A stretch of DNA of 64,000 bases, taken from contig OX637631.1 in the NCBI GenBank assembly GCA_951802195.1, positions 186,001 to 250,000 on the forward strand. The letters are read 5' to 3'. This DNA is from Tausonia pullulans. Lineage: Eukaryota; Basidiomycota; Tremellomycetes; Cystofilobasidiales; Mrakiaceae. Of this stretch, positions 21,509 to 26,100 are shown piece by piece. How positions within the stretch are numbered: the stretch's first letter is position 1; every line of letters begins with the position of its first letter. Position numbers and translations under genes: made by a program. The notes under the pieces were generated by a model that saw nothing but the letters and a program-made list of their open reading frames with translations, had not been told where the DNA came from and made no database searches.

Positions 21509-23065
21509 ATGTCTGCCGCTCTCACTCACCCCTCGGTCGTCGGTGCGTCCGCCTACTCATTTATTTGCCTCGCACCTCGCTCCCTACTTCGTTCTGGTTC
21601 CTGACTCTCGCCTCGCCCGTCTGTTATGTCTTCGCCGGACAGACGGATGGTTCCGCGAGATCTCTGACCAGTGGCCCGGTGAGTGTTTGGACGTTCCTTT
21701 TACCCTGTGTTTGACGTCGACTGACGTTTGATCCTCGAATTTTCAGGCCAGGCCATGTGCCTCAAGTGAGTAGCACGCGCGGCCGACGGATGAGAGGAGC
21801 CTGGACTCGCGCGGGCCCGCCCTAACCCGCCCGAGCTTGTCTTCTTGCTCCTCCTCTCAGGGTCAACAAGATTCTCCACACCGAGAAGTCCCTCTTCCAG
21901 GACGTCCTCGTCTTTGAGTCGGCCACCTACGGAAACGTCCTCGTCCTTGACGGCGTCATTCAGGCTACTGAGCGCGACGAGTTTTCGTGCGTCGTCCCCC
22001 TATGGCTCGGCCTTCTCTTTCACACGTACATGTGCTTACTCGACCTTGCGCTCGCACCCGCAGCTACCAGGAGATGATCACGCACATCCCGATGGCCTCG
22101 CACCCTAACCCCAAGCACGTCCTCGTCGTTGGAGGAGGTGACGGAGGTGTCATCCGTGAGGTTCTCAAGCACGAGTCCGTCGAGTCCGTCGTCCTTGTCG
22201 ACATTGACGAGGTGAATCATAGGCCGAGAAGAGGGCTCGAGAGGCATCCTGACTAACCGACCGCCACGCGTGTGGTTTCTGTAGGCCGTTCCCCGCGTGT
22301 CCAAGATCTACCTCCCCGGCATGGCCGATGTCCTCTCGCACCCGAAGGTCACCGTCCACATCGCCGACGGTTTCAAGTACCTCCCGACCGTCGAGAACAC
22401 GTTCGACGTCATCATCACCGACTCGTCGGACCCTGTCGGACCGGCGGCGTCGCTCTTTGAGGCTCCTTACTTTACGCTCATGAAGAAGGCCCTCAAGGAG
22501 AACGGTTCGCTCTCGACTCAGGGCGAGTGCCTCTGGCTCCACCTTCCTCTCATCAAGGACCTCCGGACGATGACCAAGCACCTCTTCCCGGTCGCGGAGT
22601 ACGCTTTCACGACCATCCCGACCTGTTCGTTGCGCATTTCTCCTTGTTGTTCATGCTCTGTTCCTGTCGTTGACACCCCCGTCTCCTTGCCATCTCCTTC
22701 CCCTCTTTCCCCTCTTTCCCCTCTTTCCCCTCTTTCCCCTCTCCCTCATCTCCTTCCTCTCTTCCTCTCCTTCATCTCCTTCCTCTCTTCCTCTCTTTCC
22801 CTCTCCTTCCCCCTCCGTCCCCTTCTCTCCTCCCTTCACAGACCCCTCCGGTCAGATCGGCTTCGTCGTCTGCTCCAAGGACGCCGACCGGGTCGTCTCC
22901 AAGCCCCTCCGTGAGGTCCCCAACTGCCGGTACTACAACTCCAAGGTCCACTCCGCTGCCTTCGTTCTTCCCGAGTTCGGCCGTGCCATGGTCGAGGAGG
23001 GCAAGGACCTCCTTACGGGTGCTTTCGCGGGTGTCAACACTTCGAAGCTTTCCGCTGAGAAGTAA
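21509..23065 (+). CDS. SPE3: stand-alone spermidine synthase
   Basis: Aminopropyltransferase making spermidine from putrescine and decarboxylated S-adenosylmethionine. Exons are 21509-21542, 21643-21678, 21747-21765, 21861-21986, 22064-22211, 22285-22624 and 22842-23065; they sum to 927 nt, giving 308 residues. Motifs: DGWFREISDQWPG, VLVLDGVIQATERDEFSYQE, HVLVVGGGDGGVIREV (cofactor site) and VIITDSSDPVGPA (catalytic Asp loop). The frame ends SKLSAEK-stop exactly where the neighbouring chimera continues into its dehydrogenase half. From the start of exon 5 to near the stop this copy matches the chimera almost base for base; exons 1-4 and intron 4 differ. It appears complete, with its own promoter. 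Confidence 0.95.
22062..23062 (+). repeat. left arm of SPE3 inverted duplication
   Basis: Reverse-complement match to 24703-25730, covering exons 5-7 and both introns of the stand-alone gene. Reading both arms I find two substitutions (23014 and 23041, both near the distal end) plus a difference of three 9-nt units in the last intron. Identity stops abruptly at the intron-4 acceptor. Confidence 0.93.
22700..22745 (+). repeat. 9-nt minisatellite (CCCCTCTTT), 4 units
   Basis: Tandem CCCCTCTTT units in the last SPE3 intron. The chimera's copy (about 25,029-25,092 on the minus strand) has 7 units. The extra 27 bases are the only length difference between the two arms. Confidence 0.9.
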
Positions 23066-23131
23066 ACCTTCTTAAAATGAACTCATGAAACAAAACTCAT
23101 TCCAATGGATCTATTCACAACCTGGCGTCCT

Positions 23132-26100
23132 TTAGAGAACGCTCTCAATCATGGTGATGCCCTCCTTCTCGAGCTCGGTACGGAGGATAGCGCACGTCTT
23201 CTCGTCGTACGGCTGGCACACACCCGTCTGGGTGAGCGCGCCATCGAGGATCAGCTGGACGGCGACTCCGCAGGGCACTCCGACGGTGAGGGCCCTTGAA
23301 AAGATCGTGGAGAATCAGTCAGCTTCAGTCAGTCTTTGTGCAAATGAAAGAGAGTCAGAGTGACCACGCACATTGCCGAGGGTCCATTGGGCTTTCCATA
23401 AGCCTCAAGCGTCGACGTGAGGGTCTCGACCTTGCCGTCCTTCCTCTCGACGACAAACTTGTGCTGGAGCATGACGAGGTCGCGCTCACCCGGAGCGTAG
23501 GCGCACTCCTGCTCAAGCCGGGCGCAGAGAGTGTCAAGGAGGTTGCCGCGAGGGGTCACCTTGGCGGAGGAGAAGAGGCCGAGCTGGCGCATCTTGGCAA
23601 GAAGGTGGGAACCCTGGGACTGGAACGAGGGGAGGCTCTTGAGGGTCTCGACGACGGAGCTGCGACAAGCGAGCCACAAGGTCAGCCAGTCCTCAAGGAG
23701 GCAGCCATCTGCTGATACTCCGTACTCACGCCTCAGTGGCCTCCTTGGCGCCGACGGCCTTGGCGACGACCTCGACCCAAGTGAGAGGCTCAGCGTCCTT
23801 CTTAAGGTAGTCCTTGGCCGAGTCATCGAGGAAGCCCATCTCGACCCAAGCGGCGATGACCTCCGGGAACCCTTGGTAACGGAGCGTACCACGAACGAGC
23901 GTCTCCGCCTCAGGGATGTTGTACGCCTCGACGAACGACGTCGAGTCCCGGTTCGGGTACGCGACGAACCCGAACGCCGGGGTGATGTAGTACGGCTGAG
24001 CGGTCTTCATGAGCTCCTTGCCAGCGACCTCCACGGGCTTGCCGTCCTTGATGTACTTGGCAGCGTTCGAGAGCGCAAGGAGGACACCCCGAGAAGACCA
24101 CGAGAACTTGTATCCGAGAGCGTTGTTAGAGCACTCCGGGGCGGGAAGTCCACCGCAGTAGGAGAGGAACTCCTTGATCTTGCCTCCCTCGGCGTGGACC
24201 TCCTCAATCGTCTTGACGGCCCAAAGGTGGTCGATTCCAGGGTCGAGACCAATCTCATTCATGACGAGGATGCCGGCGTCCTTGCACTTCTGGTCCAGCG
24301 CCTTCATCGCAGGGGAGACGTACGAGGTCGTGACGACGTTCTTCTTGTTGCGGATGGCAGACTCGATGACGGCCGCGTGGTAGGTGTAAGGGATGAGGGA
24401 GACAACGAGATCGTGCTTGGCGACAAGCGCGTCAAGCTCCGAGGCGTTCGAGACGTCGACCGAGACGGGCGTCGAGCCAGGAATCGTCGCGGAGAGGCCC
24501 TCGGCGGTAGCGAGGGTGCGGCATGCTGCGAGAGAAGCAGGACATAAGTCAGAGGTGCGAATCGCTCATGAAGATAGACCTGGAACGCACCGACGGTCAG
24601 GTCGTTGCCCTTGCGAGTAATGTACTCGGCAGCGGGGCCAGCGACGAAGCCCGATCCAAGGAGAAGGACCTTCTTCTTGATGGCCTTGTCGCTGGCAGCA
24701 GCCTTCTCAGCGGAAAGCTTCGAGGTGTTGACACCCGCGAAAGCACCCGTGAGGAGGTCCTTGCCCTCCTCGACCATGGCACGGCCGAACTCGGGAAGAA
24801 CGAAGGCAGCGGAGTGGACCTTGGAGTTGTAGTACCGGCAGTTGGGGACCTCACGGAGGGGCTTGGAGACGACCCGGTCGGCGTCCTTGGAGCAGACGAC
24901 GAAGCCGATCTGACCGGAGGGGTCTGTGAAGGGAGGAGAGAAGGGGACGGAGGGGGAAGGAGAGGGAAAGAGAGGAAGAGAGGAAGGAGATGAAGGAGAG
25001 GAAGAGAGGAAGGAGATGAGGGAGAGGGGAAAGAGGGGAAAGAGGGGAAAGAGGGGAAAGAGGGGAAAGAGGGGAAAGAGGGGAAAGAGGGGAAGGAGAT
25101 GGCAAGGAGACGGGGGTGTCAACGACAGGAACAGAGCATGAACAACAAGGAGAAATGCGCAACGAACAGGTCGGGATGGTCGTGAAAGCGTACTCCGCGA
25201 CCGGGAAGAGGTGCTTGGTCATCGTCCGGAGGTCCTTGATGAGAGGAAGGTGGAGCCAGAGGCACTCGCCCTGAGTCGAGAGCGAACCGTTCTCCTTGAG
25301 GGCCTTCTTCATGAGCGTAAAGTAAGGAGCCTCAAAGAGCGACGCCGCCGGTCCGACAGGGTCCGACGAGTCGGTGATGATGACGTCGAACGTGTTCTCG
25401 ACGGTCGGGAGGTACTTGAAACCGTCGGCGATGTGGACGGTGACCTTCGGGTGCGAGAGGACATCGGCCATGCCGGGGAGGTAGATCTTGGACACGCGGG
25501 GAACGGCCTACAGAAACCACACGCGTGGCGGTCGGTTAGTCAGGATGCCTCTCGAGCCCTCTTCTCGGCCTATGATTCACCTCGTCAATGTCGACAAGGA
25601 CGACGGACTCGACGGACTCGTGCTTGAGAACCTCACGGATGACACCTCCGTCACCTCCTCCAACGACGAGGACGTGCTTGGGGTTAGGGTGCGAGGCCAT
25701 CGGGATGTGCGTGATCATCTCCTGGTAGCTAAGAGACAAAGCACCCACGATCGCGCATACAAGACGTTAGCGACAAAGTCGGCGAGGGCGGGCTCATCCA
25801 AGAGATACGGCAACGCACGAAAACTCATCGCGCTCGGTGGCCTGGACGACACCGTCGAGGACGAGGACGTTTCCGTAGGTCTCAGACTCAAAGACGAGGA
25901 CGTCCTGGAAGAGGGACTTCTCGGTGTGAAGGATCTTGTTAACTCTGAGAGGTACAAGAACGGGCGGAACGACGACGGCTGATCAGTGCGGCTGAACGCG
26001 GGTGAGGCACGCTTGAATGTTGTCGACCGCTTCGGCTCACTTGAGGGTAAGGGCCTGGCCTAAGAGAGCGTATCAGGTCAGTACAGGGCCGAATATGTGC

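What the first reader, a model, noticed from the sequence alone, without database searches (positions are those of the whole stretch)
22062..25730. Sharp conversion-like tract within the inverted SPE3 pair
From the intron-4 acceptor to about 23,013 the two arms are identical base for base, introns included, except for a minisatellite length. The adjoining exon 4 differs at about 14 of 124 bases, and intron 4 is unrelated. Two substitutions appear only in the last 50 bases of the arm. Old paralogs homogenised by recent gene conversion explain this better than one recent duplication. Inverted arms with a 1.6-kb spacer are good substrates for conversion, and also for inversion of the spacer that holds the LYS9 half.
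Basis: partly seen in the sequence, partly recalled or inferred. Interest (0 to 1): 0.82.

Follow-up and report, generated by a model that had tools for sequence, protein, structure and literature searches.

The report
Homogenised inverted spermidine-synthase gene pair
A yeast-like fungus carries two old copies of a spermidine-making gene facing each other, one of them fused to a lysine-making gene; their second halves have been copied over one another until identical, and the layout would let the lysine half flip from one gene to the other.

Summary
A solo spermidine-synthase gene (SPE3, + strand, 21509-23065) and a fused SPE3-LYS9 gene (- strand, 26287-23132) stand tail to tail, stop codons 66 bp apart. 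Their arms (22062-23062; 24703-25730) are identical except for three 9-bp minisatellite copies in intron 6 and two synonymous changes in the last 49 bp. Upstream, dS is about 0.49 in exon 4 and about 2 in exons 1-3; introns 2-4 score like shuffles and intron 1 keeps a trace. One recent duplication does not give this; old paralogs homogenised by gene conversion do.

Refinements: (1) identical introns 5-6 beside unrelated introns 2-4, and the stepped divergence, fit long-running concerted evolution with a retreating 5' edge better than one event; (2) the solo gene most likely arose from the fusion gene, since it and Phaffia's solo protein carry the linker motif of the order's fused proteins; (3) the tract covers the catalytic domain and spares the tetramerisation domain. 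In silico, inversion between arms keeps both genes intact and moves LYS9 to the other 5' end. No inversion was observed. Closest precedent: the Saccharomyces chromosome XIV flip/flop repeat.

The parts
21509..21986 (+). Solo SPE3, exons 1-4 (tetramerisation domain): the diverged 5' part
   Evidence: Exons 21509-21542, 21643-21678, 21747-21765, 21861-21986; dS about 2.0 in exons 1-3 and 0.49 in exon 4 against the fused gene; PF17284 at residues 13-67 of the protein
22062..23013 (+). Left arm, homogenised tract: intron-4 acceptor AG, exon 5, intron 5, exon 6, intron 6, most of exon 7 of the solo gene
   Evidence: No substitution against the right arm; 27-bp minisatellite length difference
23014..23062 (+). 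3' tail of the left arm (linker-like C-terminus), two synonymous differences at 23014 and 23041
   Evidence: tail versus tract Fisher P=0.002, tail versus exon 4 P=0.24
23063..23065 (+). Stop codon of solo SPE3; homology to the fused gene ends just before it
22700..22735 (+). Minisatellite in intron 6 of the solo gene, 4 perfect copies of CCCCTCTTT
25030..25092 (-). The same minisatellite in intron 6 of the fused gene, 7 perfect copies
23063..24702 (.). Spacer of 1640 bp between the arms, holding the LYS9 half; the segment that an inversion between the arms would turn round
   Evidence: Arm coordinates
23132..24702 (-). Rest of the linker and the LYS9 (saccharopine dehydrogenase) half of the fused gene, with its stop at 23134-23132
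   Evidence: Gene model with GT..AG introns and a single stop, 759 aa; PF03435 and PF16653; one LYS9 place found in the genome
24703..25730 (-). Right arm: exons 5-7 and introns 5-6 of the fused gene (catalytic domain)
   Evidence: PF01564 at residues 69-247 of the fused protein
25819..26287 (-). Fused SPE3-LYS9, exons 1-4 (tetramerisation domain)
   Evidence: Exons 26287-26257, 26161-26126, 26059-26041, 25944-25819; PF17284

Best explanation
An old, partial, inverted duplication of a basidiomycete SPE3-LYS9 fusion gene gave a solo SPE3 that ends in the linker, tail to tail with its parent. Since then non-allelic gene conversion between the inverted arms has kept exons 5-7 (the catalytic domain) and introns 5-6 alike; the last round is recent. 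Exons 1-4 and the promoters have escaped, because unrelated introns 2-4 stop pairing or strand exchange at the exon-5 acceptor. Shown here: the anatomy, the identity, the steps in divergence, open frames, and low dN/dS upstream. Inferred: conversion as the mechanism (about 0.88), recurrence rather than one event (about 0.65), the fused gene as donor of the last tract (about 0.6), origin of the solo gene from the fusion gene (about 0.75). As a consequence, a crossover between the arms would invert the spacer and hand the LYS9 half to the other 5' end; this is predicted, not seen.
For: No substitution in 952 bp including two introns, beside dS 0.49 and about 2.0 upstream; exon 4 versus tract synonymous sites P=2e-9. 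Introns 2-4 at shuffle level. Amino-acid differences concentrated upstream relative to the fused Mrakia orthologue (P=0.009). The left edge of identity is the edge of homology at the exon-5 acceptor. Tract tree groups both copies with Mrakia's fused protein, apart from Phaffia's solo (94/91, just under the tool's 95/80 star). GVNT linker motif in the solo proteins of this species and Phaffia and otherwise only in P0121 and P0241, both with a LYS9 half, among 273 proteins held. dN/dS about 0.05 over exons 1-4.
Against: No DNA of relatives, populations or reads could be reached, so concerted evolution across species is not shown. Recurrence rests on 29 codons (exons 1-3) and 42 codons (exon 4); their contrast is only P=0.017 with rounded counts. 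The exon 1-4 protein tree is unresolved. Phaffia's solo is a single database record whose orthology and gene model are unchecked, so direction and origin are weak. Some other basidiomycete solo-type records also have long tails (P0002, P0009, P0103), so tail length alone is not diagnostic. Homogenised DNA was not tested against a read-level assembly check.
Confidence: 0.85

Rival explanations
1. One recent inverted duplication of the whole SPE3 part, followed by fast divergence of the 5' part.
For: The arms are nearly identical over 1 kb and lie close together.
Against: Exons 1-4 have dS about 0.81 with dN/dS about 0.05, i.e. long, constrained divergence, while 158 synonymous sites and two introns next door show no substitution. 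Introns 2-4 are at shuffle level but keep the same positions.
Confidence: 0.03
2. A single recent conversion event replaced the whole 1-kb tract of a long-diverged solo gene, introns included, with no conversion before it.
For: Zero substitutions over the tract, sharp left edge, and a tail that differs from the tract (2/49 versus 0/952, P=0.002) but not from exon 4 (P=0.24).
Against: It would have to cross two introns presumably as unrelated then as introns 2-4 are now, between exon blocks of 148, 340 and about 221 bp. Most experimental yeast tracts are put at 50 to several hundred bp, and conversion mainly above 80% identity (PMC3924818, passages). Exon 4 is less diverged than exons 1-3 (P=0.017).
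Confidence: 0.3
3. The solo gene is a relic of the un-fused ancestor, later overwritten by the fusion gene in exons 5-7.
For: Its exons 1-3 are synonymously saturated against the fused gene.
Against: The fusion is found in all 48 basidiomycetes surveyed in PMC10051792 (section 3.3 read), so a relic would be very old; yet the solo N-part differs from the fused one at only 5 of 71 residues, about as much as the fused one differs from Mrakia's (6 of 71). Intron positions match. Phaffia's solo has its own diverged version of the linker.
Confidence: 0.06
4. Assembly artefact: one arm is a misplaced copy of the other.
For: No reads were available; 1-kb inverted repeats can mislead short-read assembly (general knowledge).
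Against: The arms differ by 27 bp and two substitutions; both genes have complete, separately diverged 5' ends with open frames; the genome is in 21 contigs.
Confidence: 0.04

Closest known systems
Saccharomyces chromosome XIV flip/flop inverted repeat (YNL018C/YNL034W and YNL019C/YNL033W), PMC9731477 (abstract and passages read)
   Same: Inverted paralogs homogenised, with gene conversion proposed as the mechanism; the authors attribute recurrent inversion of the segment between them to occasional crossovers.
   Different: There 4.2-kb repeats with intergenic DNA flank a 24-kb, 15-gene segment, and both orientations are documented across the genus. Here the 1-kb repeats lie inside two coding regions, the spacer is 1.6 kb and holds the 3' half of one of the genes, and no inversion is documented.
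Human Y-chromosome palindromes (e.g. P6, PMC3723533; title and start of abstract in the listing only)
   Same: Inverted arms kept over 99.9% alike by gene conversion; rare inversions named in the title.
   Different: [quoted passage not shown] no fusion gene with homology ending inside the genes is mentioned in what I saw.
Basidiomycete chimeric spermidine synthase/saccharopine reductase (SPE3-LYS9, SpdsSr), PMC10051792 (passages and section 3.3 read)
   Same: The - strand gene has this domain order and is 85% identical to the Mrakia frigida record.
   Different: The paper reports a single copy in Flammulina filiformis; here a solo SPE3 stands beside the chimera.
Ectopic conversion in Aspergillus, PMC12844118 (abstract and passages)
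   Same: Paralog conversion in fungi that includes introns.
   Different: Several gene sets with gene splitting and loss; no fused/solo pair in the passages seen.

Membership tests
Inter-paralog gene conversion / concerted evolution | Abrupt change of divergence along the pair, introns included | tested here: met
   0 substitutions in 952 bp beside dS 0.49 and about 2.0; introns 5-6 identical but for the minisatellite, introns 2-4 at shuffle level
Inter-paralog gene conversion / concerted evolution | Paralogs more alike than orthologues inside the tract but not outside | tested here: met
   Protein level, one orthologue only (Mrakia fused): tract 0/221 versus 14/221; exons 1-4 5/71 versus 6/71 (Fisher P=0.009). 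Not tested on DNA
Inter-paralog gene conversion / concerted evolution | Homogenisation within several related species (recurrence) | not testable with these tools
   No DNA of relatives: viral-contig scan found none; the genome collections on hand hold prokaryotes
Saccharomyces-type flip/flop inversion by homogenised inverted paralogs | Homogenised inverted repeats flanking a segment | tested here: met
   Arms of 1001 and 1028 bp, 1640-bp spacer
Saccharomyces-type flip/flop inversion by homogenised inverted paralogs | Both orientations occur in nature | not testable with these tools
   One assembly, one orientation; only in-silico inversion (33 of 33 points keep both frames)
Basidiomycete SPE3-LYS9 chimera | Spermidine synthase and saccharopine dehydrogenase domains in one open frame | tested here: met
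   759-aa model with one stop; PF17284, PF01564, PF03435, PF16653; 85% to Mrakia frigida
Spermidine synthase (solo gene) | Tetramerisation and catalytic domains, no LYS9 half | tested here: met
   PF17284 and PF01564 only; 308 aa; best solved-structure match by sequence is 8iyi chain A, then named spermidine synthases
Spermidine synthase (solo gene) | Makes spermidine | not testable with these tools
   Needs an assay

The most novel reading that the evidence does not exclude
A natural gene-fusion toggle: crossovers that accompany conversion between the arms repeatedly invert the LYS9 half, so that either SPE3 5' end (promoter plus tetramerisation domain) can drive the bifunctional spermidine/lysine enzyme while the other makes the solo enzyme, and both isomers exist in nature. 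Selection tolerates this because both products stay intact.
Probability: 0.2. Interest if true: 0.75.

Novelty: new variant of a known kind. Interest (0 to 1): 0.42.

Why it matters
It is a compact case of a fused bifunctional gene and its un-fused paralog evolving in concert over only part of their length. The border of homogenisation falls where intron homology ends, which is also close to the border between the tetramerisation and catalytic domains. It makes a clear prediction, testable by simple PCR, that a metabolic gene fusion can change its 5' partner by inversion. It also warns that trees of basidiomycete spermidine synthases built on the catalytic domain can hide the age of such duplicates.

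Tried and rejected
Relatives' DNA: a viral-contig scan with a four-sequence fused-protein alignment gave 40 pattern matches and no relative. Exon 1-4 tree: unresolved. RNAi angle (read-through would make hairpin RNA): no Piwi match (control rang in 1 of 14 genomes, a prokaryote); no RdRP match (control rang nowhere, so uninformative); two weak RNase III matches. Inconclusive and not used. Change of function of the solo gene: disfavoured, because its catalytic domain is identical to the fused gene's; the isolated domain of the Ustilago maydis fusion made spermidine and no detectable spermine (PMC12803844, passage). Organism: placed only as Cystofilobasidiales-like from best hits; passages of PMC8545103, PMC12749792 and PMC7692969 did not let me name it.

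Corrections: the fused gene's end was first cut at 23137 in the script and set to 23132, with its stop, where the in-silico flip was redone. In one search one codon (the one ending at 23014, which holds a substitution) falls in neither the 'tract' nor the 'tail' row; the count of two tail substitutions comes from the base list in the same call.
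Full report
What is there. The window lies in a genome of 23.86 Mb in 21 contigs. The proteins concerned are closest to Mrakia frigida (fused, 85%) and Phaffia rhodozyma (solo, 88%), so the organism is most likely one of the Cystofilobasidiales; I could not name it. On the + strand, 21509-23065, a seven-exon gene encodes a 308-residue spermidine synthase (SPE3). On the - strand, 26287-23132, a ten-exon gene encodes a 759-residue SPE3-LYS9 fusion. Modelled introns begin GT and end AG and each frame has a single stop. 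Pfam finds the tetramerisation and catalytic domains in both, and the two saccharopine dehydrogenase domains only in the fused one. The stops are 66 bp apart. Searches of the own genome return two places for the tract, two for the tetramerisation domain and one for a LYS9 fragment, all at this locus.

The observation. From 22062 (two bases before exon 5) to 23013 the arms show no substitution; intron 6 has 4 versus 7 perfect copies of CCCCTCTTT. Substitutions at 23014 and 23041 are both synonymous and fall in the last 49 bp of the arm. Identity stops at 23062, just before the solo stop, where the fused gene runs on into its linker. To the left, exon 4 differs at 14 of 126 bases and intron 4 is at shuffle level, as are introns 2 and 3; intron 1 keeps a trace. 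The 500-bp 5' flank scores above most shuffles (11 of 300 reach it) and the 3' flank does not (106 of 300).

Statistics. Nei-Gojobori dS is about 2.0 for exons 1-3 (29 codons, saturated), 0.49 for exon 4 (42 codons), 0 for the tract (219 codons, 158 synonymous sites), and 0.04 for exon 7 as a whole. Exon 4 versus tract gives P=2e-9; exons 1-3 versus exon 4 gives P=0.017 with rounded counts. The longest difference-free coding run (668) was reached in 0 of 20,000 permutations. Over exons 1-4 dN is 0.044 and dS 0.81, a ratio of about 0.05, so the two 5' ends have diverged under constraint. With Mrakia's fused protein as yardstick, the copies differ at 5 of 71 residues in exons 1-4 and 0 of 221 in the tract; the fused protein and Mrakia's differ at 6 of 71 and 14 of 221 (Fisher P=0.009).

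Mechanism. A recent whole-gene duplication does not leave introns 5-6 identical and introns 2-4 unrelated. Gene conversion does. Its left limit at the exon-5 acceptor is where homology ends, so pairing or branch migration would stop there. A single recent event would have to replace two unrelated introns lying between exon blocks of 148, 340 and about 221 bp. PMC3924818 (passages) puts most experimental yeast tracts at 50 to several hundred bp and says conversion mainly occurs above 80% identity. I therefore favour recurrent conversion since the duplication, with a 5' edge that has retreated as introns diverged. The steps in dS, and a 44-base identical run inside exon 4 (permutation P=0.037), fit this weakly; the retreat is inferred. 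The last homogenisation is recent: no substitution in about 448 intron and synonymous sites bounds later divergence at about 0.7% (a rough count that includes the minisatellite intron).

Origin and direction. The solo protein ends in GVNTSKLSAEK. Among 273 proteins held (count), GVNT occurs only in Phaffia's solo, Mrakia's fused and one unnamed metagenomic LYS9-bearing protein. In 87 of 108 solo-type proteins in which the anchor was found, a median of 7 residues follows it, against 28 here and 25 in Phaffia; but several other solo-type records also have tails of 18-52 residues, three of them basidiomycetes (P0002, P0009, P0103), perhaps mis-split models. The motif, more than the length, suggests that the solo gene arose from the fusion gene. 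In the tract the pair groups with Mrakia's fused protein apart from Phaffia's solo (94/91), which favours the fused gene as donor if Phaffia's solo is an orthologue. PMC7692969 (passages) reports Cystofilobasidium and Phaffia as sister genera, but the place of this species is unknown, so I hold the direction at about 0.6. The exon 1-4 tree says nothing either way.

Inversion. Crossing over between the arms was simulated at 33 points in exon 6; in 33 of 33 both frames stay intact, with LYS9 moved behind the solo gene's promoter and first four exons. PMC9731477 (abstract and passages) reports recurrent inversion in Saccharomyces, attributed to continual homogenisation of inverted paralogs, and cites about 4% of conversions as crossovers; it also saw no change of orientation in about 53,800 mitoses and 950 meioses. 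Here there is one genome in one orientation and no evidence of an inversion.

Domain border. In the solo protein the tetramerisation domain covers residues 13-67 and the catalytic domain 70-248, while exons 1-4 end near codon 72. The homogenised part is thus essentially the catalytic domain plus the C-terminus, and the free part the tetramerisation domain. Whether this is selection or only intron history cannot be told.

Literature. PMC10051792 found the chimera in all 48 basidiomycetes it surveyed and a single copy in Flammulina filiformis. I saw no report of a solo SPE3 beside the chimera in the listings, but I read only passages of a few of those papers, so this is weak evidence of absence.

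Verdict. A real and well-supported case of an ordinary mechanism (interlocus conversion) in an unusual arrangement, with a testable and possibly interesting consequence.

Noticed in passing
21877-21920 (exon 4, solo) and its counterpart in 25819-25944: A 44-base identical run inside the otherwise diverged exon 4 (14 third positions without a difference, permutation P=0.037): possibly a trace of an older, short conversion.
   Followed up: partly
22700-22735 and 25030-25092: A 9-bp polypyrimidine/polypurine minisatellite lies inside the tract in intron 6 and differs by three copies; it could have changed length after the last conversion or might promote breaks.
   Followed up: no
23066-23131: Only 66 bp separate the two convergent stop codons, so the transcripts' 3' ends probably overlap, and read-through would make a 1-kb hairpin RNA.
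   Followed up: no
own genome G000: No Piwi-domain match and two weak RNase III matches; RdRP search uninformative. The genome may lack canonical RNAi, but eukaryotic positive controls were not on hand.
   Followed up: partly
P0001 (Phaffia rhodozyma, 304 aa): A solo spermidine synthase with the fusion-type linker motif is listed for Phaffia, while no listed row of the fused and LYS9 searches bears that name: the genus may have lost, split or mis-annotated the fusion gene.
   Followed up: partly
19187-20275: Coproporphyrinogen III oxidase gene (PF01218) on the - strand to the left of the solo SPE3.
   Followed up: no
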